Assembly: GCF_041415945.1 (NCBI RefSeq)
Contig: NZ_JBGCUS010000001.1
Location: 1,426,001-1,490,000, forward strand
Reading direction: 5' to 3'
DNA length: 64,000 nucleotides
DNA from: Ancylobacter sp. IITR112
GTDB taxonomy: Bacteria > Pseudomonadota > Alphaproteobacteria > Rhizobiales > Xanthobacteraceae
Part shown: in pieces, positions 29,782-62,010 of the stretch
Layout of the letters: every line of letters starts with the position of its first letter
Numbering within the stretch: position 1 is the first letter of the stretch
The notes under the pieces: model-generated
Seen by the model: the letters and a program-made list of their open reading frames with translations, nothing else
Database searches by the model: none
What the model was told of the DNA's origin: nothing
Made by a program: the position numbers and the translations under genes

Positions 29782-30081
29782 ATGGCGAAGCGAGGCAGGC
29801 GCGGCGATCCTGTCGCGCAGGAACGAAAGGGGCACCCCGGCCGGCGGCGGAAGTCGGTGCGGGCGATGGTTGCCGAAGCGGATCGCATCGCCGGGCTGCT
29901 CGCCCAGGCGCCGGCCGAGAATGGCGAGGCGCTGGCGCCGCCGGTGCTGCTGCAAGATCCGGTCTATGCCCCGGCGCTCAAGGTGTGGCGCGACCTGGCG
30001 CCGGAGCTGCGCCGGACCAATCGGCTCGGCTCGGTGCATCGCGATCAGTTCGCGATGTTCTGCGTGTACTTCGGGGAGTGA
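29782..30081 (+). pseudogene. terS: Terminase small subunit, 5' half (split by satellite A)
   Basis: Ninety-nine codons of a P27-family small terminase: MAKRGRRGDPVAQERKGHPG, then DPVYAPALKVWRDLAPELR, then RDQFAMFCVYFGE and a premature stop inside the satellite. The family normally continues from CVYFGEW. The missing half is at 39161. Joined at the shared core TTCGGGGA the protein would have 217 residues. TerS binds cos and loads TerL. Confidence 0.9.
30070..30077. other. Satellite A left attachment core
   Basis: TTCGGGGA, identical to 39163-39170. It lies within codons 97-99 of terS (Phe-Gly-Glu). Confidence 0.75.
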
Positions 30082-30109
30082 GTGAACGTACGCCAGTTTT
30101 GATATTATA

Positions 30110-30157
30110 GATCAAAGGCTTAACCCGCTTCCGACCCTATCGGAGGCGGGTTTTTTG
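30110..30157 (+). terminator. IHF-like site and terminator at satellite A left end
   Basis: GATCAAAGGCTTA (30110-30122) matches the IHF consensus except for its first base. It runs into a strong hairpin, CCGCTTCCGA with its near-complement, closing with GCGGG and six T. The T-run lies on the plus strand, so it stops phage transcription entering the satellite. Confidence 0.85.
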
Positions 30158-30164
30158 TTGCAGC

Positions 30165-30245
30165 GGACGTGACAAGAATTTCAACGGGTTAGCCAGATTT
30201 AGCCGGTGCTAGCCGCAACTGTACGCGACATGGGCGCGACAAGAA
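30165..30245 (+). promoter_or_regulatory. Satellite A left arm sites and 10-bp-phased TAGCC iterons
   Basis: GGACGTGACAAGAA (30165) and GGGCGCGACAAGAA (30232) match each other and GGCGCGACAAGAA at the right end (39105): probable integrase arm sites. Between them TAGCC occurs at 30190, 30200 and 30210, exactly one helical turn apart, a likely site for the Xis-like protein encoded next. Confidence 0.65.
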
Positions 30246-30257
30246 AGGAACCGCAAC

Positions 30258-30494
30258 ATGGTCGATGGCTCCGACGCTACCGATCTGCTGTACGGCGTGG
30301 AGGCCATTTCAAAGTGCCTCAATATGACGACCGCGCAGGTCTACCATCTCCACGCCCGAGGCCAGATACCGACGTTCAAGATCGGCAAGAAGGTGTGCTC
30401 GCGGCGTGCCTCTCTTTCCACCTGGCTTGCTGAGCAGGAGGCTAAGGCCAAAGCGCCTTCCATTGCCGGGCCGGAGGTGGGCAACAGAAAATGA
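30258..30494 (+). CDS. AlpA/excisionase-like DNA-binding protein (satellite A)
   Basis: 78 residues with a MerR/AlpA-type winged helix: ISKCLNMTTAQVYHLHARGQ, then IPTFKIGKKVCSRRASLSTW. It is clearly homologous to the first gene of satellite B (IPTFKLGAKVCARRASLDSW). Proteins of this kind are excision factors or operon activators in P4-like satellites. Overlaps the next gene by ATGA. Confidence 0.82.
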   Translation: MVDGSDATDLLYGVEAISKCLNMTTAQVYHLHARGQIPTFKIGKKVCSRRASLSTWLAEQEAKAKAPSIAGPEVGNRK

Positions 30495-31306
30495 GCCCGC
30501 GTTACAGTATTATTCCCGGAGAGGCTGTATATAATACAGCTTTGACGGATTTCGCCTTGAGAGTTCTCTGCGTAATAGGCTCTCATACCAATAATAATGG
30601 CTGGTGCATTATTCGGCGGGATACATTGGCTAAGCGATTGGGCGCCGCGCCGCGCTCTATCGCTCGCTCTCTACGGCAGCTTGAGGCCGAAGGCTACGTT
30701 TCGGTCCAACCGCGCTTCTCCGAACGGGGCACGCAGTTGGCAAATCGCTACCGCGTTCACATCCCTGATCGAGCACCGCAGGATGACAATGCCGGCGATG
30801 ACGAAGACGACTTCGAGGGTGCCGGGGAGGGGGACCAGCCGGCCCCTCATAGGGAGACCAGCCGGACACACCTTCTTCCTTCGGAAGATAACGACCTCTT
30901 TTTAGAACGACCACTGTCTTACGACAGTAGCGCACCCAGCACTTCGGCGACGGCTCCGGTGTATCCGAAGGGGCCTTCGAAGCAGAAGGGGATATGCGCA
31001 GTGCACACGCCCTTTGATGAACTGGCGAACGTGCTGGACGCCGAGCGGGCGCGTGCCGTGATCGACCATCGCCAACGCATGCGCGCCCCGCTCACGCCGC
31101 ACGCCGCCCGGCTACTGGCCGGCAAGCTCGCCGAGGCCCCCGACCCGAACGCCGCTGCCGACCAGATGCTGTTGCGAGGATGGCGAGGCTTCGATGTGAA
31201 GTGGCCGGCCGCATCCCCCCAGCAAGGCCAGAGCCGGCCCGTCTCACTTGGTGAGCATGCGCTGCGGCGCCTCGCCGATCTTCGCAAAGGTGACGCCGAT
31301 GAGTGA
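30491..31306 (+). CDS. Winged-helix replication-type protein (satellite A)
   Basis: 271 residues. N-terminal winged helix (IIRRDTLAKRLGAAPRSIAR), a long acidic linker (DDNAGDDEDDFEGAGEGD) and a C-terminal helical domain. Its codons are less GC-rich at the 5' end than the surrounding genes. Satellite B has a shorter gene in the same place. Probably a satellite replication or control protein. Confidence 0.72.
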   Translation: MSPRYSIIPGEAVYNTALTDFALRVLCVIGSHTNNNGWCIIRRDTLAKRLGAAPRSIARSLRQLEAEGYVSVQPRFSERGTQLANRYRVHIPDRAPQDDNAGDDEDDFEGAGEGDQPAPHRETSRTHLLPSEDNDLFLERPLSYDSSAPSTSATAPVYPKGPSKQKGICAVHTPFDELANVLDAERARAVIDHRQRMRAPLTPHAARLLAGKLAEAPDPNAAADQMLLRGWRGFDVKWPAASPQQGQSRPVSLGEHALRRLADLRKGDADE

Positions 31307-31781
31307 CCTGGTGCCCGATCCGCCGCGCATGGCGGCGTTGAAAGACCTGCTGGAGGCCCTGGCCAAGCTCGGCGCTTTGCCTCGCCGTTCGATGACCGAT
31401 GTTCGCATCGAGGAAGCCGTGTTCATGCTCGCGCTCAAGGATGAGCAGGGCGGGCGCGTGGTGGTCGCAGCCGAAGACCTGCACAAGGCGACGCAGCGGA
31501 TCATATCGGGCGCCCTTGGCCACGGCTTCCATCCCTCGCCCCCGGAACTGAGGCGGGTATGCGATCAGGTCAAGGATGAGCGAGTGACCGAGCAGAGCCG
31601 TCGCATCCGTGAGCAACGGATGATGCGGGAGATGGAGGAGCGCAGGCTGGGCCGGGTCACTCACAGCGCGGAAGAGCGCGAGCGGGTGAGAGCCAAGGCC
31701 GAGGCAACGATGCGGGCGCTTGATGCGGCTGCCATCCATCCCCGGCTTCGGCCGAAGAGCACGGGGAAGGGGGAGGGTTAA
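31299..31781 (+). CDS. Hypothetical satellite A protein ending in cos
   Basis: 160 residues, strongly helical in the C-terminal half (QSRRIREQRMMREMEERRLG). Overlaps the previous gene. Its last codons run into the start of the cos block (31763). No family recognised. Confidence 0.72.
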   Translation: MSDLVPDPPRMAALKDLLEALAKLGALPRRSMTDVRIEEAVFMLALKDEQGGRVVVAAEDLHKATQRIISGALGHGFHPSPPELRRVCDQVKDERVTEQSRRIREQRMMREMEERRLGRVTHSAEERERVRAKAEATMRALDAAAIHPRLRPKSTGKGEG

Positions 31782-31858
31782 ACTCTCCCGCCTCTCGCCT
31801 CCGTACCGGCGCCCAATAGCGAGTTTTTCGGCGCGTAATTCGCGGTATGGTTTTTTTT
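31763..31858. other. cos copy in satellite A
   Basis: Contains CCGTACCGGCGCCCAATAG at 31801-31819, identical to the prophage cos, with the same flanks: G-rich left part, AAACTCTCC, GAGTTTTT, GGCGCG, AATTC and a final T-run. AATCAGCGCCTTA at 31868-31880 matches the IHF consensus perfectly. Presence outside any packaging gene suggests that it lets the satellite be cut and packaged by phage terminase. The next 227 bp hold no convincing gene. Confidence 0.75.
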
Positions 31859-32107
31859 CAATAGACAAATCAGCGCCTTAAGTCGGCGCGGCGTGTTTCG
31901 CCATGAGCATGAGAGTTGCCAATCTGCCGGTCTCGCGGTAGGAGTTGGGGGCTTGTCTGTGGTCGCGGCTGATGGCTTCGACTTTCTGACGGCCTTCCGA
32001 ACGGCAACGCTGATGGCGAAGCGCGCTTGGGCCAATGCATCCGGTTCAACCCCGATGCGGTGCCTCTGCTCGTTTCAGCGCCCGCATCCGCTCCGAAGGT
32101 CTTCCCC

Positions 32108-33538
32108 ATGAAGAACATTGTTACCGATCGTCAGGCGCTGGAAATGCGCCGTCATTCGGCTTCCATCCTGCAGAAGCTCGGGCTTCGGCACGACGCCAAC
32201 TTCGAGCCGCACACGCTCGACTGGTCGGCGCTGAACGACTGCCAGAACCAGGTGATGCGCGCCGCCCGTCTCAACCTCGACCGCATGGACGGCGCCAGCG
32301 AGAGCGACGGCCCCGGCCTGGAGCAGGCGCATGAGGGGTTCATGGCCCTCTATGACGCCTGCGAGCGCGAGAAGGACTGGCGCGGCAAGTTGGGAAGCCG
32401 TGAGGCGCGCGCCGAAGGCGGCAACCCCTTCCGCCCGACGCCCGGCGACTGCGAGGCGCGCGGAGTTGAGGATGGTGAAAGCTATGAGTATGGCGGCGGT
32501 CCGGGAGCGTCCGGCCCCTCCGATGTGACGCGCGCCCTCCGGCTGAATGAGAGCTTCGGCGGCGCCCTGCGGAGCCTTCGCGGCGGCGGCGCCGCCGGCC
32601 GCGGCTTCAATGAATATCGGGGTCTCACCCCCGGCGGGTTCCTCCGCGCCATGGTGCGGGGACCGCAGAGTGCCGTCGAGCGGCGCGCCCTTGCCGAGAG
32701 CACGGATTCGGCCGGCGGCTATACCGTGCCCGATGTCATCATGGCACCGATGATCGACCGTATGCGGGCGGCCTCGGTGGTGATGCGGGCGGGCGCCCTG
32801 ACGATCCCGATCACGTCCGACAATGCGTCGTTTGCCAAGGTCGCGACTGACCCGGTGCCTGCCTGGCGCGCCGAGAATGAGGCGGCGGCTGAGAGTGACC
32901 CGACGTTCGCCAAGGTACCCTTTGCGCCAAAGTCCCTCATGGTCATTGTGCGCATTTCCCGCGAGCTGTTGGATGACAGTATCAACATCGGGACGGCGCT
33001 GCCCAATGTGATTGCGCAAGCCATGGCGACCGAACTGGACCGGGTGGCGCTGATGGGCAGCGGATCGGGGAGTCAGCCGCGCGGCGTTGCTAACTTCGCG
33101 GGGCTGACCGCGAGCGGCTATTCGGCGCTGGAGCTGGCAAATTATGTGCCGCTGGTGCGGATGCGGACGGCCTTGCGCACGGCTAACAGCGACGCCACGG
33201 CGTTCATCATGTCGCCACGCGACGAGGGCGCCCTGGCCGAAAAGCTCGACGGTGAAGGCAATCCGCTCATCATCCCGCCCGCGATCGCGAGCACGCCCCG
33301 GCTGGCAACGACCTCGATCCCGACCAATCTCGGGGGTGGCGCCAATCAGTCGCTTATTCTGGCGGGTGATTGGTCGCGCCTGATGGTCGGCATTCGCAGC
33401 GAGCTGCGTATCGAAATCCTTAAGGAGCGGTACGCCGACTATCACCAGTATGCCTTCGTGGCGCACCTGCGGGCCGACATCGCCGCCGAGCACGAAGCGG
33501 CCTTCTGCAAGATCCCCGCCGTCACGCTGCCGGCGTAG
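32108..33538 (+). CDS. HK97-type major capsid protein carried by satellite A
   Basis: 476 residues. The C-terminal 280 are an HK97-fold capsid (ESTDSAGGYTVPDVIMAPMI, then KSLMVIVRISRELLDDSINI, then ALMGSGSGSQPRGV). The N-terminal 200 are a scaffold-like, charged region. It differs from the prophage capsid, being of another subfamily, and has no portal or protease of its own. It could form a different shell around satellite DNA using the phage portal. The prophage capsid gene is broken, so this is the only complete one in the window. Confidence 0.9.
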   Translation: MKNIVTDRQALEMRRHSASILQKLGLRHDANFEPHTLDWSALNDCQNQVMRAARLNLDRMDGASESDGPGLEQAHEGFMALYDACEREKDWRGKLGSREARAEGGNPFRPTPGDCEARGVEDGESYEYGGGPGASGPSDVTRALRLNESFGGALRSLRGGGAAGRGFNEYRGLTPGGFLRAMVRGPQSAVERRALAESTDSAGGYTVPDVIMAPMIDRMRAASVVMRAGALTIPITSDNASFAKVATDPVPAWRAENEAAAESDPTFAKVPFAPKSLMVIVRISRELLDDSINIGTALPNVIAQAMATELDRVALMGSGSGSQPRGVANFAGLTASGYSALELANYVPLVRMRTALRTANSDATAFIMSPRDEGALAEKLDGEGNPLIIPPAIASTPRLATTSIPTNLGGGANQSLILAGDWSRLMVGIRSELRIEILKERYADYHQYAFVAHLRADIAAEHEAAFCKIPAVTLPA

Positions 33539-33544
33539 CAGTCT

Positions 33545-33576
33545 CCGTGGCCGCTCGCTGGCGCTGGCGGCCACGG
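33545..33576 (+). terminator. Stem-loop after satellite A capsid gene
   Basis: Perfect 10-bp inverted repeat CCGTGGCCGC / GCGGCCACGG with a 12-base loop. No T-run; an attenuator or processing site is as likely as a terminator. Confidence 0.5.
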
Positions 33577-33702
33577 TTGAGGGGTTCAGTTCCCCCCTCG
33601 GGACAAGTCGGCGAGTGTCCCCAACAACCCCGACAGCCGGCGGCCTCTCATCCAAAGTGGCGCGGCCGGCAACCTCTTTCTAGCACCAGCGGAGGCTCGC
33701 CT

Positions 33703-35484
33703 ATGGCGAAAGGACAAGTCGTCGGCGCCCTGCGCGTCAGTCTCGGCCTCGATAGCGCCGAGTTCGAGAACAGTCTGGCGCAGTCGGGCAAGCAGGCCAA
33801 GACCTTCGCGAGGGAAGCCGAGGCCAGCATGGGGGCGGCGGCGAAAGGCTTTCAGGCAGCTGCCGCCGGCATCCGTGCCGGCATTGCCGGCCTGACCTTC
33901 GCGGCGGTGACGGCCTCGATCAACGGATCGGTCAACGCCCTCGCCGAACTGGACGATCAGGCCAAGCGCTCCGGCCTCTCCCTCCGGTCCTTTCAGGAAT
34001 GGAAGTTCGTTGCGGAGAGCAACCGCATCGGCATCGATGCCATGGTGGATGGCTTCAAAGAACTGAACCTGCGGGCGGACGAGTTCATCACCACGGGCGG
34101 CGGCAGCGCAGCGGAGGCTTTCCAGCGGCTGGGCTTCAGCGCGACAGACCTTGCCGAGCGGATCAAAGACCCTTCCGAGATGATGCTGGAGATCATCCGG
34201 CGCCTCGGCGACATCGACAAGGCGGCACAGATTCGCATCTTCGATGAGCTTCTCGGCGGCTCCGGCGGCGAGCAGTTCGTGCAGCTCATCACACAGGGCG
34301 AAAGGGGCCTGCGGCAGACGATCCAGCAAGCGCACGAGCTGGGGAACGTGCTGGGTGATGACGTGGTGAAGGAGGCGGCGAACATCCGAAAGGAGTTTGA
34401 CCAGATCGCCAATACCATCAGCATCAACCTGCAAGGCGCCGTGGTGAAGCTGGTCAAGACGCTTCGCGACATGCCGAGCGCGATGGCAAACGCGGTGCAG
34501 GTTGTCGCCGATGCGCCGAAATCGGCGCTCGCCTCGCTCGATGGCGAGATCGCCGGCATGCGCAAGCAACTCACCCAGCATGAAGCGACGCGCAACTACG
34601 CCATCATGGGCGACCTTAAGAACCGTATCGTTGAGGCTGAGCGCCAGCGTGACGCACTCGCCGAACTGGTACGCGAGGGCAATCGCAGCTGGGGCTCGGC
34701 TTCGACAATGCCGGCCACGGCGCCGCTGCCGCCGACCAAGCCGGCCGAGTGGTCTCCCATCACCCCGCCGGCCAAGGGCGGCGGCGGTGGCGGGAGCAGC
34801 GAACAGGATCAGGCGGCGGCGCAACTCGCTTCCCGCATCGAGGGCCTGAAAATGGCTCTTTCCACCGAACGCGAGCTTGAACTCGCCGCCCATGAGCAGC
34901 GGCAGGCGGACCTTCTTGCCTCTTTCGAGGCCGGCAGGATGGCGCGCGAGGAATACAACCAGTGGACCGAGCGGGAGCAAGCGGCGCATGCCGAGCGCAT
35001 GAGCGCCATCGCGGAAAACCAAGCTGCCGCAGAAAGACAGAAGCTGCAGGACACGTTCAGCTTCACGGCGGACACCTTCGGCAGCCTGGCGACGCTGGCA
35101 CAGACCTTCGGCGAAAAGGGGTTCGCAGCGGCCAAGGCGTTCGGTATCGCCGAAGCGGTCATCAACACAGCGGTAGGCGTCACTAAGGCGCTGGAGCTGC
35201 CCTTCCCGGTGAACATGGCCGCAGCGGCTTCCGTTGCCGCTGCCGGCGCGGCGCAGATTGCCACCATTGCGGCGGCCCGCCCTGGCGGATCCAGCCGGCC
35301 GAGCGTGCCCTATACCGCCGTCGCCAATGCGGCACCGCCGGGTTCGACGGACAATGCCAGCCGGGCGCCGGCGTACGTCAATATCACCGGATCGAAGGTT
35401 ACATGGAATCGCGATGAAGTAATCGAGCTTCTCGGCGAAATTCAGGGGCTGATTGATGACGGATACACCCTCAAATTCTCCTAG
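33703..35484 (+). CDS. Tape-measure protein carried by satellite A
   Basis: 593 residues, a close homologue of the prophage tape measure at 48711 (585 residues). Shared blocks include AQIRIFDELLGGSGGEQFVQ and EWKFVAE, and both end with the same alanine-rich region followed by ARPGGSSRPSVPY. The length is almost the same, so a tail built on it should have about the same length. The middle part differs strongly, which could alter binding to chaperone, tail tube or DNA. Confidence 0.85.
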   Translation: MAKGQVVGALRVSLGLDSAEFENSLAQSGKQAKTFAREAEASMGAAAKGFQAAAAGIRAGIAGLTFAAVTASINGSVNALAELDDQAKRSGLSLRSFQEWKFVAESNRIGIDAMVDGFKELNLRADEFITTGGGSAAEAFQRLGFSATDLAERIKDPSEMMLEIIRRLGDIDKAAQIRIFDELLGGSGGEQFVQLITQGERGLRQTIQQAHELGNVLGDDVVKEAANIRKEFDQIANTISINLQGAVVKLVKTLRDMPSAMANAVQVVADAPKSALASLDGEIAGMRKQLTQHEATRNYAIMGDLKNRIVEAERQRDALAELVREGNRSWGSASTMPATAPLPPTKPAEWSPITPPAKGGGGGGSSEQDQAAAQLASRIEGLKMALSTERELELAAHEQRQADLLASFEAGRMAREEYNQWTEREQAAHAERMSAIAENQAAAERQKLQDTFSFTADTFGSLATLAQTFGEKGFAAAKAFGIAEAVINTAVGVTKALELPFPVNMAAAASVAAAGAAQIATIAAARPGGSSRPSVPYTAVANAAPPGSTDNASRAPAYVNITGSKVTWNRDEVIELLGEIQGLIDDGYTLKFS

Positions 35485-35558
35485 ATTCTGATCGTCGGCA
35501 AATATCTGCCGTATGCATCAGTGTTATGCGAAAACATGTCTCAATGAAGGAAAATGCT

Positions 35559-35945
35559 ATGACTTCGAAGTACAAGCCGACTGCTATTCTTCACGTGGAC
35601 GAAAAGTTCTATTCGCTTGTTCTTTCAATCAATGCCTTGTGCAGCCTGGAAACTATAACTGGCCGCCCTGCGGGCAGCATGGTGATGGAGTTGATTGACG
35701 CAGCTGCCAAGCCGCAGACGATCAGCGTGAAGATGCTGCGCACGATGCTGTGGGCGGCGCTGCGCGAGTATCATCCCGAGATCGATGAAGATGGCGCCGG
35801 TCAGATTGCGACGGACGCAGGCGCGTTCAACGTGCTGGCGGCGGTTATGGAGGCGGCGGCAGCGGCTTTCCCCGCGCCCAATATCGTCAATAAGAGCGCG
35901 GCTGAGGTGGTCGCGGAGGTGTCGGAGGCTATTCCGGCGGCGTAG
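35559..35945 (+). CDS. Tail-assembly chaperone homologue (GTA gp10-like) in satellite A
   Basis: 128 residues. Homologous to the prophage protein at 48034 (SINALCSLETITGRPAGSMV against SINAMCALEAKLGRPMGAIM, then LRTMLWAALREYHPEIDEDG). The downstream reading frame that follows the prophage copy is missing here. AAGGA lies 8 bases before the start. Together with the tape measure it forms a minimal tail-assembly set. Confidence 0.78.
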   Translation: MTSKYKPTAILHVDEKFYSLVLSINALCSLETITGRPAGSMVMELIDAAAKPQTISVKMLRTMLWAALREYHPEIDEDGAGQIATDAGAFNVLAAVMEAAAAAFPAPNIVNKSAAEVVAEVSEAIPAA

Positions 35946-35991
35946 CGGCTGCGGGTCATGTGGGTGCGATTGTCTCGCGCCGCGCGAGCGT

Positions 35992-36030
35992 CCCTCCAAG
36001 GATGCGCTGAATAGGCACGCCCTTGGAGGG
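35992..36030. terminator. Bidirectional stem between tail chaperone and brnA
   Basis: CCCTCCAAGG and CCTTGGAGGG, perfect over 10 bp and extended by GCGT/ACGC. Placed between convergent genes. Confidence 0.6.
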
Positions 36031-36056
36031 AGACGCGAAACAGGTCACGGCGGGCC

Positions 36057-36365
36057 TCATCCGTTCGCCGCCTTCTCCAGCGCCTCGGCCATCCGGCTGC
36101 GCCAATCCTTGCCGCTCGCCTTGAACCTCTCCACCGTGGCGGGATCGAGCCGTAGGGTGACAGCCTCCTTCGGGCTTTCCACCTTCGGCCGTCCGCGCGC
36201 GCGCTTGATGCTCGCCATCAGGTCCGGGAACGCCTCGGCGAACGGCTTGGCCTGCGCCATCTGTTCGTCGGTAAGCTCCGGGTTGTCGGCATCGGTGGCG
36301 ATGCCCCGTTGAATGACCGCCTCTTCCTCGTCGGAGAGCGGGTGCGTGTGCTTGGTGCCGGTCAT
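36057..36365 (-). CDS. brnA: BrnA-type antitoxin (satellite A)
   Basis: 102 residues. C-terminal ribbon-helix-helix: PKEAVTLRLDPATVERFKAS, then GKDWRSRMAEALEKA. It lies 14 bp after the toxin gene. BrnA neutralises BrnT and represses the operon. The satellite B copy is related but longer. Confidence 0.85.
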   Translation of the reverse strand: MTGTKHTHPLSDEEEAVIQRGIATDADNPELTDEQMAQAKPFAEAFPDLMASIKRARGRPKVESPKEAVTLRLDPATVERFKASGKDWRSRMAEALEKAANG

Positions 36366-36379
36366 GGACCCTCCTTGGT

Positions 36380-36634
36380 CTACGGCTGGAGACGACTTCT
36401 CTCTTTCCGGGTAGCCCGGCGCATGGAGATGACGGAAAGCGCCTCCGAGCCGAGGGGCTTGAAGACGACGGCGACAATGATCCGGCCGTGAAGCTCGCCG
36501 ACTGCCACATAGCGGCCATCCCGCGAGGGGACGACGACCGAGCTGGCGAAGAAATCGAGATCGAGGGCGGCGAAGTCCATGCCGTGCTTGGCAAGGTTCG
36601 CTTGGCGCTTCGGCTCGTCCCACGTGATCATCAT
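36380..36634 (-). CDS. brnT: BrnT-type ribonuclease toxin (satellite A)
   Basis: 84 residues, start MMITWDEPKRQANLAKHGMD, then FKPLGSEALSVISMRRATRK: the full BrnT signature, including the EALSVISMRRA block. Toxin first, antitoxin second is the usual brnTA order. As an addiction module it would punish loss of the element. Confidence 0.9.
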   Translation of the reverse strand: MMITWDEPKRQANLAKHGMDFAALDLDFFASSVVVPSRDGRYVAVGELHGRIIVAVVFKPLGSEALSVISMRRATRKERSRLQP

Positions 36635-36643
36635 GAGAATATA

Positions 36644-36685
36644 CGTACACGGAAAATAAGAGCCGGTCAATCTTATCTGTGTACG
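36644..36685 (-). promoter_or_regulatory. brnTA operator/promoter (satellite A)
   Basis: Inverted repeat CGTACAC..ATAAGA with TCTTAT..GTGTACG, in an AT-rich window 10 bp upstream of the toxin start. BrnA proteins bind such palindromes. Confidence 0.6.
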
Positions 36686-36690
36686 AAAAA

Positions 36691-36887: not shown

Positions 36888-37022
36888 GGGAGCGGTGCTC
36901 TATGTCCAGAGGGTTCGCCCTTAAAAGTGCGCCGGCTTGTCTCTTTCGCAAGCTCTCACCTCCCGGCTGCTGGCCCGATGCCAGCGACGGCTGTGAGAGG
37001 CCGAACGAAAGAGACCAATCCC

Positions 37023-37876: not shown

Positions 37877-37883
37877 CACCCTC

Positions 37884-53518: not shown

Positions 53519-53534
53519 GGCGGGAGCGCTTCCC

Positions 53535-54185: not shown

Positions 54186-55698
54186 CAAAGACAGGTACAT
54201 CGAGGTTGGCGGGGATGACGCGCCGCACGATGCGGGCCGCAAGGGAAAGGCCAAGGCCAAGCTGAAGGCGGACGACACGCCTCGCGAGCCGCGCGCCATG
54301 GGATATTCGGTGGATGCGATGAACCGGGAATGGTGCGTCGTGCTCATGCGGTCGCGGCTCGTGATCATCCGCGAGGCTGGCGACGGGCCGCTGGGTCGAT
54401 GCGTCAATGTGCTGGGAATGGATGCGTTCCGGGCTTGGAGCCTCAACAAGGTCACTGAGAAAAAGGACCGGGACGGAAAGATAACGGTGGAGACGTGGGC
54501 GGATGCATGGCTTCGCTCGCCAATGCGGCGCGAGTATACCGGCATCGAGTTCCGGCCCGGCGACGATGCCAAAACAACGCCGGGATACATGAATATGTGG
54601 CGTGGCTTCACTGTGGCGCCCGTGTTCAAGAAGAACGGCTATGCCATCTTCCGCGATCACCTGTTCAACAATGTCTGCGAGGGTGACGAGCACCTGTTTC
54701 GCTGGGTCTTCGGCTGGCTGGCGCACCTGGTGCAGAAGCCGCGCGAGCGGATCGGCACCGCCCTCGTGCTCCGGGGTACCATGGGCGCCGGCAAGAGCAA
54801 GATGGGCGAGGTTGTCGGCTCGCTGATCGGCCCGCACTATTTCGCCGTTGATGATCCTCGTTATGTCATTGACCGGTTCAACGCCCATCTTGTCGGGTGC
54901 CTTCTGCTGCAAGCCGAAGAAGCGTTCTGGGCGGGCGATAAGGTCGCGGAAGGTCGCCTGAAAGGACTGGTGACCTCTCATGTGCAGATGATCGAGGAAA
55001 AGGGTGTCGATGCGATCGCGGTAGATAACTACGTGCGCATCATGATCACCTCGAATGAGGACTGGGTTGTTCCGGCCGGCATGAAGGAACGCCGCTGGTG
55101 CGTTCTCGACGTGAACCCACGCTGTGCGCAGAACAACGAATACTTCAGGGAAATGGACGAGCAGCTTGACGCCGGCGGGCGCGAGGCGCTGCTGTTCGAC
55201 CTGCTTCACTTCGACCTGTCGGGCATCGATCTGCGGCGCATCCCGCGCACGTCGGGCCTGCTTGAGCAGAAGCTGCATTCCCTCGATAGCGTGACCAGCT
55301 GGTGGTATCACCGGCTCGAAAGCGGCGCCCCGACCAAGGGACTTGACCGCTGGCCCGAAGCACTGCCCGTCGATACGCTGTTCCAAGATTACATTGAAAC
55401 ATCGGAGCGGATCGGCATTCGTCGCCGGGCCGAAATGACTTCATTCGGCATCAAGATGCGGCGCCTTGTGCCTGGGCTGACCGCCGAGCGCCGGACGTGG
55501 GAGATCCACTCCGGCACGTTCAAGCGGTGCCGCTGCTATGTGCTGCCCGATCTGGCGTCGTGCCGCGCCGCGCTTGAGGAAATGCTTGAGCAGGCTATCG
55601 TATGGACGCGCGACGCTGATGCTGAGGATGAGGCCGATCAACCGTCCGAAGGGGACGGCCCGGCGCAGGGAGTAGACGACGGAAGCGGCGAGGGTTAG
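54175..55698 (+). CDS. Primase-helicase with SF3/DUF5906-type ATPase (satellite B)
   Basis: 507 residues. ATPase core: Walker A RGTMGAGKSKMGE near residue 200, Walker B LLLQAEEAF, and sensor MITSNEDWVVPAGMKERRWC as in DUF5906/SF3-like phage and satellite helicases. N-terminal 190 residues may bind DNA or prime; the C-terminus is acidic. Similar to the alpha protein idea of P4: one protein that starts satellite replication. Confidence 0.83.
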   Translation: MTHDKDRYIEVGGDDAPHDAGRKGKAKAKLKADDTPREPRAMGYSVDAMNREWCVVLMRSRLVIIREAGDGPLGRCVNVLGMDAFRAWSLNKVTEKKDRDGKITVETWADAWLRSPMRREYTGIEFRPGDDAKTTPGYMNMWRGFTVAPVFKKNGYAIFRDHLFNNVCEGDEHLFRWVFGWLAHLVQKPRERIGTALVLRGTMGAGKSKMGEVVGSLIGPHYFAVDDPRYVIDRFNAHLVGCLLLQAEEAFWAGDKVAEGRLKGLVTSHVQMIEEKGVDAIAVDNYVRIMITSNEDWVVPAGMKERRWCVLDVNPRCAQNNEYFREMDEQLDAGGREALLFDLLHFDLSGIDLRRIPRTSGLLEQKLHSLDSVTSWWYHRLESGAPTKGLDRWPEALPVDTLFQDYIETSERIGIRRRAEMTSFGIKMRRLVPGLTAERRTWEIHSGTFKRCRCYVLPDLASCRAALEEMLEQAIVWTRDADAEDEADQPSEGDGPAQGVDDGSGEG

Positions 55699-56118
55699 CG
55701 TGCCTCTACCGTTGGTGCTGCTCTGCGCCCGTTGCGTTGGCGTACCTGTCACACGTTCGGCCACCTCTTAAATGCAGGTTGCCACCTAATCACCCCGACA
55801 TTTCAATAGCTTGGCATACCTCCACACCTCGGGGTCACGCGCGGGATCGCGCACGCGCGCGCCCCTCTTCTTATATTTCTTAGTTATATCAAGCGGTTAA
55901 GGTAAGGGGCCTTCGGGTTGGTGGGAGCAGCGCCGCGCATCGCCGTGTTCGGTTCATCTTGCCATCAGTCGGGCGGCGGCCCGGTTAACAGGGCCGGGCG
56001 CACGGGCGCCGTCGGTGCTGGATGCTTGAGGCATGGCACATGCCTGCGTCGTGGCGCGAGCGCGTCGGGGGTGGGGGGTGTCAAAAGTCTGGAAGGCGCG
56101 TTGCCCGCAGACCCGCGT

Positions 56119-56141
56119 CCCTCGCATTGAGGGATTTTTTT
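56119..56141 (+). terminator. Terminator after satellite B replication genes
   Basis: CCCTC-gcatt-GAGGG followed by seven T after one A. Confidence 0.8.
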
Positions 56142-56198
56142 CCGGTCGAGCGAGAATTCAGGGGCACGACGCCGCAAGCGTTCAATTAAAACGTTTTA

Positions 56199-56211
56199 AA
56201 TCAATGGGTTA
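56199..56211 (+). promoter_or_regulatory. IHF-type site before satellite B cos
   Basis: AATCAATGGGTTA; full match to the consensus. It lies 58 bp before cos, a similar place to the prophage site. Confidence 0.6.
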
Positions 56212-56268
56212 GATATAGTCTGGCCCATGGCAAGCCTATTTATTTCCCTATTGTGAGCTGATGGCCAA

Positions 56269-56361
56269 GGGGAGGGGTGGGTCAAAACTCTCCAGCCTTC
56301 GCCGCCGTACCGGCGCCCAAGAGCGAGTTTTTCGGCGCGTAATTCCGCCGGTAGTTTTTTT
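56269..56361. other. cos copy in satellite B
   Basis: Core CCGTACCGGCGCCCAAGAG at 56305-56323, one base different from the prophage and satellite A copies, with AAAACTCTCC before and GAGTTTTTCGGCGCGTAATTC-type sequence after, then a T-run. After it, 56362-56670 holds no convincing gene; a 65-codon frame at 56492 is poor. Confidence 0.75.
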
Positions 56362-56670
56362 CGACGCAACACCAATGACTTAGGAACTCGCGGCGGCTTC
56401 CGTTGCCGTCCCGCGATGCTGCTGCCGTGCGCCCACTGCGGCGCCGGCCTCGCCCTTCGCTTCCTTTCCAGTCCACTACGGAGGCTCGTCCATGAGATCG
56501 AGCGGTTTCCCCCGTCGTCACGCCGACGATCTCGGGAGCGATGACCTAAGCGCATCACGCGGGCGACTGCCGCACGTCCCGGTTCCCCTTGGCCTTGCGG
56601 TGCGGTTGGTAATGGCACGCCTGGCAATGCGCATGCAGAAGCGCCCCGAAGCGCCTACCTCACCAGCCCG

Positions 56671-57595
56671 GCATCCCCGCCGGCCCTGATGCGGCGCCGG
56701 CAGGTTCGGGGCGCCGCTCGCCACCGGATCGCCGGCCCGCTCGCCAGCGGGCGCCGTGGGCGGGCGTTCTGGCCTTGGCGCGACCTCGGCAGGGGGCACG
56801 CCGCTCATCTGCCGCCAGCGGCCCGCTCTGCGGCTGGGCTCGCCGGATCGCCCCGGCATCCTCGCCGGCCCTGACGCCGCGCCGCAGGTTCGGGGCGCCG
56901 CTCGCCATCGGATCGCCGGCCCGGCTCGCCAGCGGGCGCCGTGGGCGGGCGTTCTGGCCTTGGCGCGACCTCGGCACCGGGCACGCCGCTCATCTGCCGC
57001 CAGCGGCCCGCTCTGCGGCTGGGCTCGCCGGATCGCCCCGGCATCCTCGCCGGCCCTGACGCCGCGCCGCAGGTTCGGGGCGCCGCTCGCCATCGGATCG
57101 CCGGCCCGGCTCGCCAGCGGGCGCCGTGGGCGGGCGTTCTGGCCTTGGCGCGATCTCGGCACCGGGCGCGCCGCACCTTCGCCGCCAGCGGCCCGCCCTG
57201 CGGCTGGGCTCGCCGGATCGGCCCGGCATCCTCGCCGGCCCTGACGCCGCGCCGCAGGTTCGGGGCGCCGCTCGCCCTCGGATCGCCAGCCGGGCGCGCC
57301 AGCGGGCGCCGTGGGCGGGCGTTCTGGCCTTGGCGCGACCTCGGCACCGGGCACGCCGCACCGTCGCCGCCAGCGGCCCGCCCTGCGGCTGGGCTCGCCG
57401 GATCGCCCCGGCATCCTCGCCGGCCCTGACGCCGCGCCGCAGGTTCGGGGCGCCCCTCGCCATCGGATTGCCGGCCCGGCTCGCCAGCGGGCGCCGTGGG
57501 CGGGCGTTCTGGCCTTGGCACGGCTTCGGCACCGGGCGTGCCGTCCGTCGCAATCAGCGGCCCGCCCTGCGGCTCGGTGCGGCCGGTTAGGTCTT
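56671..57595. repeat. Five tandem 185-bp repeats (satellite B)
   Basis: GCATCCTCGCCGGCCCTGA recurs at 56671 (variant), 56856, 57041, 57226 and 57411, exactly 185 bp apart; the units are almost identical, the first and last most divergent. They are rich in short inverted elements (GGCGCC, CCAGCGG, GGGCGGGCG). A partial copy follows at 58497. Because 185 is not a multiple of three, the open frames across it repeat in different phases and are not a protein. Function unknown: replication, structure, or amplified dispersed repeats. Confidence 0.95.
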
Positions 57596-57718
57596 GACTA
57601 CACCGCCAATCATTTCCCTCGGCCGAGAGGGTGCAGCGCCCGAGCAAAAGCTCGTCCAGGCGCTTTTCGTTGTGCGTCCTGCTTCGGCCGGCCGGGCGCG
57701 TTCTTCGGAGGATTTGGG

Positions 57719-58477
57719 ATGAATTCAGGGACCGATACGGGCCTTGCCGCCATCGACATCAGCGGTGTGGATGCCCAGCCGCTCACCATGTCCACGCTGG
57801 AAATTGCGGACCTGCTCGACAAGCGGCACGATCATGTCATGCGCGACGCGCGCAAGATGTTGGCAGAGCTCCACGGGGGCGACCGTCTCCCCAACTTTGG
57901 GGGCGTGGTGGAGCGCCCTAACCCCAGTGGCGGCGCTCCAATCAAGTCGCCTGTTCTACGCCTTCCCAAGCGGGAAACGCTTATCCTCGTTTCCGGCTAT
58001 CGCCTCGATCTGCGCGCCCGCATCATTGATCGCTGGCTTGAACTGGAAGCCGCCGCGGCGCCGCCATCCGCCGCCTTCGACCCGTCCGATCCGCTGGTAG
58101 TGCTTGCTGTGGTCGATCACATGCGCCGGCAGGTGACGGAACGCGACGCGATCATCGCCGGACAGGCCGAGAAGGTCCGCCACCTGGCGCGGCTTGAGGG
58201 CGCGGAAGGCAGCATGTGCCTGCGCGACGCGGCGAAGACGCTCAACGTGCGGCCTACGGAGCTGATATCCTTCCTCTCGATGCGGCGATGGATCTACAAG
58301 CGGCCGGGCAACGCCAGCTGGATCGGCTATCAGGACAAGATTCAGTCCGGCTTTCTCGATCACATCGATTTCCTGTATCGCGACGACGACGGGCGCGACC
58401 GCGTGGCGAGCCGCGTCCACGTGACCGCGAAGGGGCTGGCGCGCATCGCGGAGATATTGAGCGGCCCGGTTCGCTGA
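57719..58477 (+). CDS. Rha/KilA-type phage antirepressor-like protein (satellite B)
   Basis: 252 residues. N-terminal Rha domain (MSTLEIADLLDKRHDHVMRD, then RETLILVSGYRLDLRARIID) and a C-terminal antirepressor KilAC region (LRDAAKTLNVRPTELISFLS, then VTAKGLARIAE). GGAGGA lies upstream. Rha and Ant proteins counteract phage repressors, and a satellite that makes one could derepress the resident prophage. Confidence 0.83.
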   Translation: MNSGTDTGLAAIDISGVDAQPLTMSTLEIADLLDKRHDHVMRDARKMLAELHGGDRLPNFGGVVERPNPSGGAPIKSPVLRLPKRETLILVSGYRLDLRARIIDRWLELEAAAAPPSAAFDPSDPLVVLAVVDHMRRQVTERDAIIAGQAEKVRHLARLEGAEGSMCLRDAAKTLNVRPTELISFLSMRRWIYKRPGNASWIGYQDKIQSGFLDHIDFLYRDDDGRDRVASRVHVTAKGLARIAEILSGPVR

Positions 58478-58496
58478 TCGTGCGCCGCGCGGGCTT

Positions 58497-58625
58497 ATGC
58501 GGCGCCGCTCGCCAGCGGGCGCCGTGGGCGGGCGTTCCGGTCTTCGGGCGGCCAGCGTCAGGATGCGCCATCCGCCGCCACCAGCGGCCCGCCCTGCGGA
58601 TGGGCGCGCCGGATTGCCGTTCTGG
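58497..58625. repeat. Diverged single copy of the 185-bp repeat
   Basis: GCGGCGCCGCTCGCCAGCGG, then GCGGGCGTTC, then CAGCGGCCCGCCCTGCGG: partial match to the tandem unit, between the Rha gene and brnA. Confidence 0.75.
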
Positions 58626-58638
58626 CCATCACCAGCTC

Positions 58639-59064
58639 CTACAGCCCCCGCGCTTTGCGCAGGTCATCGTTCATGCGCGCCTGCCATCCTTGCCCGGTGC
58701 GCCTGTATTCCTCGATCACATCGGAATCGAGCCGCAGCGAAAGCAGGCGCTTGGGCGTTTCTGACTTCGGACGGCCGCGCCCCCGCCGGATGGTCTCGGC
58801 AAGCTCCGGCAGCGCCTCGGCAAGAGGGCGGGCCTGTGCCAGTTCCTCGTCTGTGCGGGGTCGTTCGGTCTCGGGATCGGGGCCGATAAGCTCGCCGGTC
58901 ATCGTGTCAATCCACCAGCCGTCCGCGTCCTGGCGCGCGCCTCCGGCGGCAATGATCGCCTGCATTTCAGTGTTGTAGGCTTCCCACCGGCGCATCATTT
59001 CGGCGGCATCCTCGGGGGTGTCTCCAAGATCGCGGGTGATGAAGCTGGGCCATGCCTTAGTCAT
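58639..59064 (-). CDS. brnA: BrnA-type antitoxin (satellite B)
   Basis: 141 residues with C-terminal ribbon-helix-helix (PKRLLSLRLDSDVIEEYRRT, then GQGWQARMNDDLRKAR). An N-terminal extension of some 40 residues is not found in copy A. Overlaps the toxin gene by 8 bp. Confidence 0.83.
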   Translation of the reverse strand: MTKAWPSFITRDLGDTPEDAAEMMRRWEAYNTEMQAIIAAGGARQDADGWWIDTMTGELIGPDPETERPRTDEELAQARPLAEALPELAETIRRGRGRPKSETPKRLLSLRLDSDVIEEYRRTGQGWQARMNDDLRKARGL

Positions 59065-59311
59065 GCAAGAGGCTCCTTTCCTTCCTGTCGGCGCGGCGCA
59101 TGGAGATGACCGAAAGCGCCTCGGTGCCGAGCGGGGCGAACACCACGGCAATGATGACCGCGCCGTTGTGCTCGCCGATGGCGAGTTGGCGACCGTCCTT
59201 CGCGGGGACGATGACAGCGGCGGCGAAGAACTCGAGCGACAGCGCGGCGAAGTCGAAGCCGTGCTTGTCGATGTTCGCCAGCCGCTTGGGCTCGTCCCAT
59301 GTGATGATCAT
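59057..59311 (-). CDS. brnT: BrnT-type ribonuclease toxin (satellite B)
   Basis: 84 residues, MIITWDEPKRLANIDKHGFD then GTEALSVISMRRADRKERSL; same fold and length as copy A but diverged, so cross-neutralisation is uncertain. The start at 59311 matches copy A. Confidence 0.9.
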   Translation of the reverse strand: MIITWDEPKRLANIDKHGFDFAALSLEFFAAAVIVPAKDGRQLAIGEHNGAVIIAVVFAPLGTEALSVISMRRADRKERSLLHD

Positions 59312-59320
59312 GTGGATATT

Positions 59321-59368
59321 CGTAGCTACGAAAATAAGATGCGTCAATAAACGTAGCTACAAAAATAA
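59321..59368 (-). promoter_or_regulatory. brnTA operator (satellite B)
   Basis: CGTAGCTACGAAAATAA and CGTAGCTACAAAAATAA, direct repeats 31 bp apart; each CGTAGCTACG is palindromic. Different from the copy A operator. Confidence 0.65.
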
Positions 59369-59377
59369 CGCGCGCGG

Positions 59378-59628
59378 GTTCGCCACCATCTTGCCGGATG
59401 GTGCGAACTGGCGCATGAATTGAAATGGAGCCTGGAAACTCCCGAGATGGTCCCTTGCCGGGGATAGCATCTCAGCCGCGATAGGCGTGCGCTGCGACCT
59501 TGCCGGGTCTGTGCGTCGCCGAAATTTGACGCGCCCTGCCGTGGGCGTGACCGGCTCACTATGCCGGGAGTGCCACGGCGCAGGCAACTGAAAAGTTGCT
59601 TGGGATAAAACAGCCTTCGGGTGAAGGC
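59378..59628 (+). ncRNA. Hairpin array B with TTGCCG loops, candidate structured RNA
   Basis: Stem-loops at 59378-59408 (CACCATC/GATGGTG), 59444-59473 (GAGATG/CATCTC with inner CCC/GGG), 59484-59520 (GGCG/CGCC and GACC/GGTC), 59532-59547 (CGCCC/GGGCG), 59584-59599 and 59613-59628. The first three have the loop TTGCCG. Same position and style as array A, with no alignable primary sequence in the stems. The remaining part up to 59753 has no gene. Confidence 0.45.
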
Positions 59629-59753
59629 CGTGGCGCACGTTCTCGCGGACGTGTTTCCAGACTCCCGGTGCCAGCCTGTCGCTGGCGTGGGTGCCCCCAA
59701 CTGGGTGGCATCCCCGGCCCTGGAAAGCCGGTTCTAGACCGCGAGCAGAACCC

Positions 59754-60374
59754 ATGTACATCGGAGAAGACTACGGAGGGCCGTTCCCGCCCCCGCTTGC
59801 CGACCGGCTGAATACCCGCCGGGAGCTTTCGCGCATCATCGAGTCGGCGCTGTCCATGCTCGATGCCCTCGACACTATCGACGCCGACCGCGAGCCGGAT
59901 GGTGACGAGCTTGATGCCAGCTGGCCGGAGCAATCTGGCCCGTGCATTTCGGGGCGGGCCGTGTCGCAGGAAGACGACGAGCCTTCGCTCGGCTGGCACG
60001 CCATCGGCGGCGGGTGCTGGTTCTTCGATGATGGCAGCGACCGCGAGTGGGACGCCTCTGACGATCCAGACGGCTATGACAGCGATAGGGAGCCCGCTCT
60101 GGCCGCGCCGGAGAGTTTTCCCCGCATCTGCTACGGCGGGCCGCTCCCTGCCGCCTACGGCTTCTCTGACCGGCTGCGGGGCGCTTCCGGCGGCGATCAA
60201 TCGCGATGGGCTATCGGCTGCGCCAATGACCGCGAGGAAGACGCGGGCGACGATGCCGAGGCTGAGAACGAGCACGGCGGCGATATCCTCGACCAGCCGC
60301 ACGACGACGACGACAGCGGCATCGCCGACCATGACGGCCTGTGGGAGCAGGCGCAGCGGGGGGTGTCGACATGA
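59754..60374 (+). CDS. Acidic conserved satellite protein (copy B)
   Basis: 206 residues, MYIGEDYGGPFPPPLADRLN and on. Differs from copy A by scattered substitutions with no indels. The reading frame is kept and changes look mostly conservative, so the gene is probably under selection. Function unknown. Confidence 0.82.
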   Translation: MYIGEDYGGPFPPPLADRLNTRRELSRIIESALSMLDALDTIDADREPDGDELDASWPEQSGPCISGRAVSQEDDEPSLGWHAIGGGCWFFDDGSDREWDASDDPDGYDSDREPALAAPESFPRICYGGPLPAAYGFSDRLRGASGGDQSRWAIGCANDREEDAGDDAEAENEHGGDILDQPHDDDDSGIADHDGLWEQAQRGVST

Positions 60375-60607
60375 CGGCGTCAGCCTTGACGCATCTGCGC
60401 GAGATCCATCTGCCGGCGTTGGACGCGGCCCGCTTCTGCCTCGCGGCGCGGCTGATGGTGGACGGCTTGAGGGATGAGCTAAGCCCACCTCATTCCGACG
60501 CTCTGCAAGCCGTGCTGTTCCATGCCTGCGACAGGCTGGAGCAGATAGACCGGCAGATTGAGCACTGGTGCGCAAGCCTCGCCGAGGCCGGCAGCGCCGC
60601 GAACTGA
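60371..60607 (+). CDS. Small conserved satellite protein (copy B)
   Basis: 78 residues, nearly identical to 37640-37876. ATGA overlap with the acidic gene. Confidence 0.8.
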   Translation: MTASALTHLREIHLPALDAARFCLAARLMVDGLRDELSPPHSDALQAVLFHACDRLEQIDRQIEHWCASLAEAGSAAN

Positions 60608-60614
60608 CACCCTC

Positions 60615-60644
60615 GCCGGCCGCGCCCGGTGAGGTGCGGCCGGC
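60615..60644 (+). terminator. Stem-loop before satellite B integrase
   Basis: GCCGGCCGC and GCGGCCGGC, the same as before the satellite A integrase. Confidence 0.5.
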
Positions 60645-60671
60645 TTCCCCTCATATTCAGGAGTTGAAGCT

Positions 60672-61982
60672 ATGGCGAGCGTGGCAAAGCGCGAGTGGAC
60701 CCACAAGGGCGAGACGAAAACGGCCTGGGTGGTGCGCTACACCGACCAAGGCGGCAAGCGCCGCATGAAGACATTCGAGAAGAAAAAGGATGCCGATCGC
60801 TTCAGGTCAACCGTTGAAACGGAAATCGAGAACGGCACGCACGTCGCTGACCGAGCGTCAAAGACGGTTAAGGAAGCAGCGGAGGGGTATCTTCTCGATT
60901 GTGAGCGGCGCTGGAAAGTGGCTGACCGAATGGCCGGCGGAACTCTCCACGGACATATCTCGCGGGTAAATAACCATATAATTCCAAATATCGGACATAT
61001 GAAGATAAAAGATGTTACGAGTGATAGAGTGCAATTTTTGATTGACGATCTGTCAAAGCATCTTGCTAAAGCAACGATCTCAAATGTGATGGTTACTTTG
61101 ATCGGAATTATCCGATTTTCGATAAAGCGCCGATGGATCACAAGGAATGTTCTTCGTGATGATCCGGTGCAATTACCTCAGTCTAATCGCAAAAGGAGGG
61201 TGGCCCCGAGTAAAGCGGAAATTAGCACGCTATTGGAGGCGTCATCGCGGAGGCTGCAAGGGGGCTTTTTGGCCTCTGCGGTGAACCGGTATGCCATTGT
61301 ACGACTGGGCGTGTTCGGGGGGCTGAGGCTTGGCGAGATGTGTGCGCTTCGGTGGGAGGACATTGATATCCGTCGCGGCGTTATTCATGTCCGACACTCC
61401 CGATCCCGGTACGATGGAAGGAAGTGCCCCAAGTCGCGCGCGGGCGTGCGCTCGGTGCCATTGACGTACCCTGTATATGAAGCGCTTTGCCGCGTCGCTC
61501 GATTGTGGCGGATAAATGAGTTTGTCGACAAAGAGGCAAGTGACGGGGGGCGATCAAGTAAACCTAGCGCTCTGAGAAAACGCAAGCTGGACCTCTACGA
61601 GGCTGGAAAGGCGTTTTCGGTGTTCGGACCAGATAGCTTTATGGACATGTCAGGCGATGTGCTGCGAACGGCTAGGGGAACGCCTGCGAGGACCAACATA
61701 TCGGATGAATGGCGGAGAATGATGGAAGATGCCAATTTGGTCGATGGGGACCGTGTGCGCTTTACCATCCACTCTCTGCGCCATGCAGCTGCGAGCCTCT
61801 TGATTGAGGCTGGCCTGCCCGCAATGAACCTGAAGACAGTAATAGGGCACGCTTCGGTCACGACGACCTACAATGTTTATGGCCATCTATTCCCGGAAGA
61901 TGAGCGCACCTCTAGGGCCGCTCATGGGATTGCGGCCGCCTTTGGCGCGACAAGGGCGCTACAAGAAGGCGTAAGCCGCTGA
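60672..61982 (+). CDS. Satellite B integrase (tyrosine recombinase, tail-tip-specific)
   Basis: 436 residues. First 35 or so residues equal the satellite A integrase, then no similarity beyond the family. Catalytic: Arg in VFGGLRLGEMCALRW, HSLRHAAASLLIEAG and GHASVTTTYNVYGH with Tyr. Longer than A by an insert around residues 270-330. Middle part less GC-rich, suggesting another origin than the N-terminus. Two arm sites lie in its last codons (61944-61967). Confidence 0.93.
   Translation: MASVAKREWTHKGETKTAWVVRYTDQGGKRRMKTFEKKKDADRFRSTVETEIENGTHVADRASKTVKEAAEGYLLDCERRWKVADRMAGGTLHGHISRVNNHIIPNIGHMKIKDVTSDRVQFLIDDLSKHLAKATISNVMVTLIGIIRFSIKRRWITRNVLRDDPVQLPQSNRKRRVAPSKAEISTLLEASSRRLQGGFLASAVNRYAIVRLGVFGGLRLGEMCALRWEDIDIRRGVIHVRHSRSRYDGRKCPKSRAGVRSVPLTYPVYEALCRVARLWRINEFVDKEASDGGRSSKPSALRKRKLDLYEAGKAFSVFGPDSFMDMSGDVLRTARGTPARTNISDEWRRMMEDANLVDGDRVRFTIHSLRHAAASLLIEAGLPAMNLKTVIGHASVTTTYNVYGHLFPEDERTSRAAHGIAAAFGATRALQEGVSR
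61944..61967 (+). promoter_or_regulatory. Satellite B right arm sites
   Basis: GGCGCGACAAG (61944) and GGCGCTACAAGAA (61955), 11 bp apart, inside the 3' end of the integrase gene. Same spacing as the left pair. Confidence 0.6.
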
Positions 61983-62003
61983 AAACAAACAGATAGGTTA
62001 AGT

Positions 62004-62010
62004 ATATCCT
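62004..62010. other. Satellite B right attachment core
   Basis: ATATCCT, as at 52680-52686. The downstream bases continue the tail-tip reading frame. Confidence 0.7.

What the first reader, a model, noticed from the sequence alone, without database searches (positions are those of the whole stretch)
30070..62010. Two related satellite-like elements nested inside late genes of one prophage
Satellite A splits terS (cores TTCGGGGA at 30070 and 39163) and satellite B splits a tail-tip gene (cores ATATCCT at 52680 and 62004). In each case joining the outer halves gives one continuous, family-typical protein. Both have the same plan of terminator, arm sites, Xis-like gene, cos, brnTA, hairpin array, acidic gene and integrase. 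Known satellites (P4, PICI, PLE) usually sit in the chromosome. Here the satellite sits in the helper genes that it needs, so satellite excision and phage maturation would be linked.
Basis: partly seen in the sequence, partly recalled or inferred. Interest (0 to 1): 0.95.

Follow-up and report, generated by a model that had tools for sequence, protein, structure and literature searches.

The report
Two satellites embedded in one prophage
Two small virus-parasitising DNA elements sit inside late genes of one bacterial virus lying dormant in a chromosome, each with a copy of that virus's likely packaging signal; the arrangement is known from gut bacteria, but here it looks like a separate lineage with different enzymes and a mirrored layout.

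Summary
Element A (9,093 bp) splits terS and element B (9,324 bp) splits a tail-tip/fiber gene of one prophage. Searched separately, the terS halves abut in 57 of 57 loci that match both; the tail gene is whole in both relatives found. A ~95-bp cos-like block beside the helper's terS recurs in A (88%) and B (82%) and nowhere else in the 4.99-Mb genome. A carries its own capsid, tape-measure and tail-chaperone genes; B a primase-helicase and an antirepressor.

Integrase relatives split terL, portal, protease, protease-capsid and capsid genes of other prophages, most with a cos block matching their host phage or its close kin.

The principle is published: helper-embedded PICIs in Enterobacterales, even two in one helper (PMC10111431). 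This lineage differs: unrelated integrase clade, integrase at the 3' end, other arm sites, a terminator inside the left end, and integrases sharing the N-terminal part but not the rest. Verdict: new variant of a known kind, probably convergent. The helper's head genes here are damaged, so activity in this strain is doubtful; excision and packaging are inferred.

The parts
13453..13478 (.). Left att repeat (26 bp) of the helper prophage; second copy at 71028 in window numbering, beyond the window, at a tRNA-Pro gene
13570..14667 (-). Helper prophage integrase
29652..29746 (+). Cos-like block of the helper, between the HNH gene and terS
29866..30081 (+). terS, left part (start codon chosen by my gene caller; last residues read into element A)
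30070..39162 (+). Element A, 9,093 bp, between two copies of TTCGGGGA (30070, 39163)
30122..30160 (+). Terminator-like hairpin just inside the left end of A
30258..30494 (+). HTH_17 gene of A, excisionase-like (E 8e-5, below Pfam cut-off)
30491..31306 (+). Replication-initiator-like HTH_36 protein of A
31764..31857 (+). Cos-like block of A, 87.5% identical to the helper's
32108..33538 (+). Major capsid protein of A (Pfam Phage_capsid)
33703..35484 (+). Tape-measure-like protein of A, 50% identical to the helper's at 48711-50468
   Evidence: (below cut-off)
35544..35945 (+). GTA-gp10-like tail chaperone of A (below Pfam cut-off; 41% to the helper's at 48034)
36057..36634 (-). BrnT toxin / BrnA antitoxin pair of A
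37023..37643 (+). Acidic gene of A, 95% identical to that of B
37941..39095 (+). Tyrosine integrase of A; first ~125 bp nearly identical to that of B, the rest diverged
39166..39528 (+). terS, right part
39543..41306 (+). Helper terL
42953..44153 (+). Insertion sequence (18-bp inverted ends; IS3-type by recall) between a protease lacking ~67 C-terminal residues and a capsid protein lacking ~100 N-terminal residues
51323..52690 (+). Tail-tip/fiber gene, left part
52680..62003 (+). Element B, 9,324 bp, between two copies of ATATCCT (52680, 62004)
52741..52779 (+). Terminator-like hairpin just inside the left end of B
52878..53099 (+). HTH_17 gene of B (below Pfam cut-off)
54175..55698 (+). DUF5906 / phage DNA-primase-like protein of B
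56269..56361 (+). Cos-like block of B, 82% identical to the helper's
56667..57574 (.). 185-bp tandem repeat, 4.9 copies, in B
57719..58477 (+). Rha/KilAC antirepressor-like protein of B
58639..59311 (-). BrnT/BrnA pair of B
59754..60374 (+). Acidic gene of B
60672..61982 (+). Tyrosine integrase of B
62012..62872 (+). Tail-tip/fiber gene, right part

Best explanation
A and B are helper-embedded phage satellites of an alphaproteobacterial lineage. Shown from sequence: each sits at a 7-8-bp core inside a late gene of one prophage, has an HTH_17 gene at its left and a tyrosine integrase at its right end, carries a block like that prophage's cos, and has relatives in other late genes of other prophages. 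Inferred: on induction the integrase with the HTH_17 factor excises the satellite and so restores terS or the tail gene; the helper's TerS-TerL package satellite DNA at the shared block; in A and most relatives the satellite's own capsid protein, with tape-measure protein in most, shapes its particle; the left-end terminator stops helper late transcription until excision, holding back the genes downstream as well as the split one. Satellites change target when the core-binding/catalytic part of the integrase is exchanged while its arm-binding start and the neighbouring cassette stay.
For: terS halves abut in 57 of 57 loci matching both; tail gene whole in 2 of 2 relatives. Cos-like block at exactly three places in the genome: helper, A, B. 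In a 10 x 9 satellite-helper matrix the own helper is best for 7 of 10. Late genes split around the element in 11 of 87 integrase loci, 9 distinct, three more by a looser test. HTH_17 gene in 10 of 10, terminator at the left in 10 of 10 and at the right in 0 of 10. Capsid proteins in 9 of 10, all but B. A, B and L012: 95-97% identical DNA into the first 125-182 bp of the integrase, then a sharp drop.
Against: No excision, circle or particle was seen; all action is inferred. The helper here has damaged head genes. Cos matching fails for L136, is weak for L103, and for L010 and L169 each other's (closely related) helper scores higher; L148, L169 and L170 share other short stretches with their helpers too. 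No relative has the exact core of A or B. 25 of 59 integrase loci show no late-gene fragment, and 0 of 6 more distant class members do, two on short contigs. One relative lies in a conjugative plasmid. The exchange of integrase parts is read from three sequences.
Confidence: 0.85

Rival explanations
1. Same origin, but here both satellites are stranded: the resident helper can no longer build heads, so A and B persist as passengers (perhaps kept by brnTA) until another suitable phage enters.
For: Protease and capsid genes damaged at the insertion sequence; brnTA in both elements; the cos-like block occurs nowhere else and the only other TerL in the genome is 23% identical. The 2023 paper reports that many HE-PICI helpers look truncated.
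Against: The integrases and most satellite genes are open; A has its own capsid gene. It concerns present activity, not origin, and is compatible with the main explanation.
Confidence: 0.6
2. The elements are remnants of other prophages or genomic islands that landed in late genes without any dependence on this phage.
For: A's capsid and tape-measure genes are phage genes; one relative lies in a conjugative plasmid and more distant integrases are not beside late genes.
Against: Small, constant layout with no terminase or portal found in A's ten scanned proteins, matching cos-like blocks and repeated insertion in late genes.
Confidence: 0.05
3. They are members of the published enterobacterial HE-PICI clade, spread by horizontal transfer.
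For: Same habit: late-gene sites, co-orientation, HTH_17-type factor, shared cos.
Against: 11capE's integrase matches B at E 0.004 and A not at E<=1; its best match among ours is L100 at 1.7e-7, weaker than to P4 (3e-15). It groups with P4 in the tree, 99/99, though on long branches. Integrase at the other end; motif TGTATTGC in 0 of 10.
Confidence: 0.04

Closest known systems
HE-PICI, helper-embedded PICI (type 11capE in prophage 50icd, E. coli NRG857c; PMC10111431)
   Same: [quoted passage not shown] one published helper also has two.
   Different: Unrelated integrase clade; integrase at the 3' end instead of the 5' end; other, 11-bp-spaced arm-like repeats and no TGTATTGC motif; terminator just inside the left end; tape-measure genes; sites in terS and a tail-tip/fiber gene; Alphaproteobacteria, where the paper's main text reports none.
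Gram-negative PICIs in chromosomal sites and P4
   Same: ~10-kb size, integrase, AlpA-like factor, dependence on helper packaging (recalled and PMC10111431).
   Different: Sit in a prophage late gene; integrases not close to P4's.
Capsid-forming PICIs (cf-PICI; recalled)
   Same: Satellite-encoded capsid protein.
   Different: No portal, terminase or protease among A's ten scanned proteins; tail-ruler genes instead.

Membership tests
[quoted passage not shown]
   A in terS, B in tail gene; relatives in other late genes
HE-PICI | Key genes co-oriented with the split late gene | tested here: met
   HTH_17, structural or primase genes and integrase on the + strand with terS and tail gene; only brnTA is on the - strand
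HE-PICI | Integrase belongs to the 11capE clade | tested here: not met
HE-PICI | Order integrase-AlpA-Bro-primase-late, integrase at the 5' end | tested here: not met
   Integrase at the 3' end, HTH_17 at the 5' end in A and B; 11capE layout seen
HE-PICI | Doubled attP motif with TGTATTGC | tested here: not met
   0 of 10 satellites' end sequences; a different 11-bp-spaced repeat lies 42-57 bp before the right core in 7 of 9 and after the left core as a pair in 4 of 9
HE-PICI | Cos region shared with the helper | tested here: met
   A and B with this helper; 7 of 10 satellites best with own helper
HE-PICI | Excision observed on helper induction | not testable with these tools
   needs an experiment
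cf-PICI | Own set of capsid, portal, protease and terminase genes (recalled) | tested here: not met
   Only a capsid protein among A's ten Pfam-scanned proteins; none of these among B's ten
P4-like satellite | P4-type integrase | tested here: not met
   A against P4 integrase only E 0.007, 21% over 149 aa; separate in the tree

The most novel reading that the evidence does not exclude
Helper embedding evolved a second time, independently of the enterobacterial HE-PICIs, in an alphaproteobacterial integrase clade that moves between late genes (terS, terL, portal, protease, capsid, tail) by exchanging the core-binding/catalytic part of its integrase while keeping the arm-binding start, arm sites and accessory cassette; the left-end terminator makes the integrated satellite a transcriptional lock on all late genes downstream. 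A bolder, weaker addition: A (structural genes, no primase) and B (primase, no structural genes) in one helper divide labour.
Probability: 0.6. Interest if true: 0.72.

Novelty: new variant of a known kind. Interest (0 to 1): 0.62.

Why it matters
It suggests that living inside the helper's late genes is a repeatable strategy and not an enterobacterial oddity. Near-identical cassettes with different integrase cores (A, B, L012) are natural material for asking how tyrosine integrases change target. Matching cos-like blocks can tie a satellite to its phage from sequence alone, which would help to find helpers for satellites in metagenomes.

Tried and rejected
Chance or assembly artefact: rejected; halves of split genes abut in relatives and the layout recurs in independent records; the window lies in a 4.56-Mb contig. 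Late-gene tropism of the wider integrase family: not supported; of 7 of 385 class genomes with a match at E<=1e-60, one is this genome, and the six others show no recognised late gene, two of them on contigs of 4.5 and 5.9 kb (two further fetched stretches, L217 and L218, were not analysed). Integrase A at E<=1e-40: 3 of 297 order genomes, own included. Acidic gene: 1 of 149 family genomes, the own one. A's capsid protein in viral contigs: nothing confirmed. Integrase B among phage records: best 27% identity. One search's left-half test returned nothing because I used an option the program lacks; repeated. There L010's hit falls on the satellite's own capsid gene and is discounted; one search is used for L010. 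The 59 loci leave out 9 records that I judged duplicates, the window's own copies and loci with integrase matches weaker than 1e-15; L159 and L160 have identical integrases. Of the 34 positives, 4 have no named gene class and 8 rest on three homologs or fewer. Terminators come from my own scan, whose only control is the right ends. Att repeats of relatives (7-11 bp) are read from a listing without chance control, and L103's core is unclear. In one search the HTH_17 query set held L148's own sequence; its kinship to A's and B's is. Novelty searches. Of PMC10111431 I read parts 1-5 of 8 of the text (abstract to mid-results), the discussion and a term search, no supplement or figure; other papers only as listings.
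Full report
What is there. The window is part of a 4.56-Mb contig of a 4.99-Mb genome. Two same-order genomes have contigs of 35,850 and 23,605 bases, the lengths of named Hansschlegelia and Faunimonas contigs, so I infer a Hyphomicrobiales (Rhizobiales) host; the order name is recalled. A prophage lies between a 26-bp repeat at 13453 and its copy at 71028 in window numbering, at a tRNA-Pro gene: about 57.6 kb, or about 39.2 kb without the two elements.

Element A, 9,093 bp, lies between copies of TTCGGGGA in terS; element B, 9,324 bp, between copies of ATATCCT in a tail-tip/fiber gene. Searched separately, the terS halves both matched in 57 loci and abut in all 57 with the same overlap. Thirteen other loci matched one half only; in three a weak second match abuts, the others are unresolved. 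The tail gene is uninterrupted in both relatives found, one of them DNA-alignable across the site. The exact cores were not seen in relatives.

Gene content. A: HTH_17, replication-initiator-like protein, cos-like block, major capsid, tape-measure, tail chaperone, BrnT/BrnA, acidic gene, integrase. B: HTH_17, HTH_36 protein, DUF5906 primase-like protein, cos-like block, 185-bp repeats, Rha/KilAC antirepressor, BrnT/BrnA, acidic gene, integrase. HTH_17, tape-measure and chaperone matches of A lie below Pfam's cut-offs; the last two rest mainly on 50% and 41% identity to the helper's genes. A and B share 94.6% identical DNA over 1,046 bp, from the acidic gene into the first ~125 bp of the integrase; as proteins the integrases are 34% identical. 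A relative of A in L012 (96.8% over 2,051 bp) has a third integrase with the same start and sits in terL. Identity in 60-nt steps falls from 97 and 87-97% to 53-75 and then 41-48%. I read this as exchange of the part that recognises the core.

Packaging signal. The helper's gap between HNH gene and terS has a ~95-bp block that recurs in A and B and nowhere else in the genome at E<=0.01. For eight relatives I fetched the helper's terminase region. In the 10 x 9 matrix the own helper is best for 7 of 10 satellites (A, B, L011, L012, L148, L103, L170); L010 and L169 each score higher with the other's helper (71.6 against 69.8, 86.9 against 71.6 bits), and those two helpers are close kin; L136 has no convincing match and L103's is weak (41 bits). 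Leaving that pair aside, off-diagonal scores reach at most 45.5 bits. L148, L169 and L170 also share other short stretches with their helpers. This is the best evidence that the surrounding phage is the helper.

The family. Integrase searches gave 33 genome and 53 viral loci, some overlapping earlier ones. Both halves of a late gene around the element: 11 of 87 loci, 9 distinct, and three more, L100, L102 and L134, by a looser test. Sites, by Pfam of uninterrupted homologs or similarity to them, are terL, portal, protease, protease-capsid fusion and capsid, besides terS and tail gene here. A late-gene fragment lacking its beginning follows the integrase in 34 of 59 loci, four without named class and eight resting on three homologs or fewer; 25 of 59 show none, some because the contig ends there. 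Of ten satellites looked at closely (A, B and eight relatives chosen because both halves were found) all have the HTH_17 gene near the left end and a terminator-like hairpin beginning about 50-65 nt after the left core where the core is clear, none at the right. The acidic gene is found in 8 of 10 (motif in 7; L103 by similarity). Capsid proteins occur in 9 of 10, all but B; tape-measure proteins in A, L010, L012, L148, L169 and L170, not detected in L011 and L136, and L103 has a long gene at that place. Satellite capsid and tape-measure proteins are not always closest to those of their own helper; A, L169 and L170 are the clearest cases for tape measure or capsid.

How it probably works. Shown: sites, cores, gene content, cos matching. 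Inferred from tyrosine-recombinase and satellite biology: HTH_17 acts as excision factor; excision restores the split gene; the helper's terminase packages at the shared block; own capsid and tape-measure proteins shape the particle. The terminator would silence late genes downstream of the insertion; in the circular form it would follow the integrase gene.

State in this strain. An insertion sequence at 42953-44153 (IS3-type by recall of its two reading frames, not scanned) separates a protease lacking about 67 C-terminal residues from a capsid protein lacking about 100 N-terminal ones, judged against L093. The helper is probably head-defective. The 2023 paper notes that many HE-PICI helpers look truncated.

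Known or new. [quoted passage not shown] Its main text does not contain 'Alphaproteobacteria', 'tape measure' or 'tail tip' and says that integrase matches had phage surroundings only among the Enterobacterales. The present clade is separate: 11capE's integrase matches B at E 0.004, A not at E<=1, L100 at 1.7e-7 and P4 at 3e-15, and groups with P4 in the tree (long branches, so only the exclusion is claimed). Targets are coherent in some subclades (four protease-capsid; three terL) and mixed in one (two terL with one portal); A's place is unresolved. More distant class members are not beside late genes, and one relative lies in an Ancylobacter plasmid beside conjugation genes, like the off-target cases of the paper. 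I therefore file it as a new variant, probably convergent, of helper-embedded satellites, not as a member of the HE-PICI clade.

Noticed in passing
42953-44153: Insertion sequence with 18-bp inverted ends; the flanking protease and capsid genes have lost adjoining parts, so more than a simple insertion happened.
   Followed up: partly
56667-57574: 185-bp tandem repeat, 4.9 copies at 94% match, in the non-coding middle of element B next to its cos-like block; role unknown, perhaps replication.
   Followed up: no
L197:4025-14221: Ancylobacter pratisalsi plasmid pLGM holds a satellite of this kind (HTH, antirepressor, capsid, protease, tape-measure-like gene, integrase) near conjugation genes, not in a prophage.
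   Followed up: partly
L012:13049-16490: After the split terL the contig shows only small genes and then genes whose starts equal those at window 71363-72764 beyond this prophage: a much reduced helper at what looks like the same chromosomal site.
   Followed up: no
L196:1305-14901: Azospirillum brasilense replicon: phage portal-like gene upstream and an HTH_17-plus-integrase element downstream; the split gene was not identified.
   Followed up: partly
25643-27436 and 23842-25317: Two long prophage genes that look like DNA methyltransferases by their sequence; not scanned.
   Followed up: no
3927-10010: A 2,027-aa open reading frame outside the prophage, not examined.
   Followed up: no
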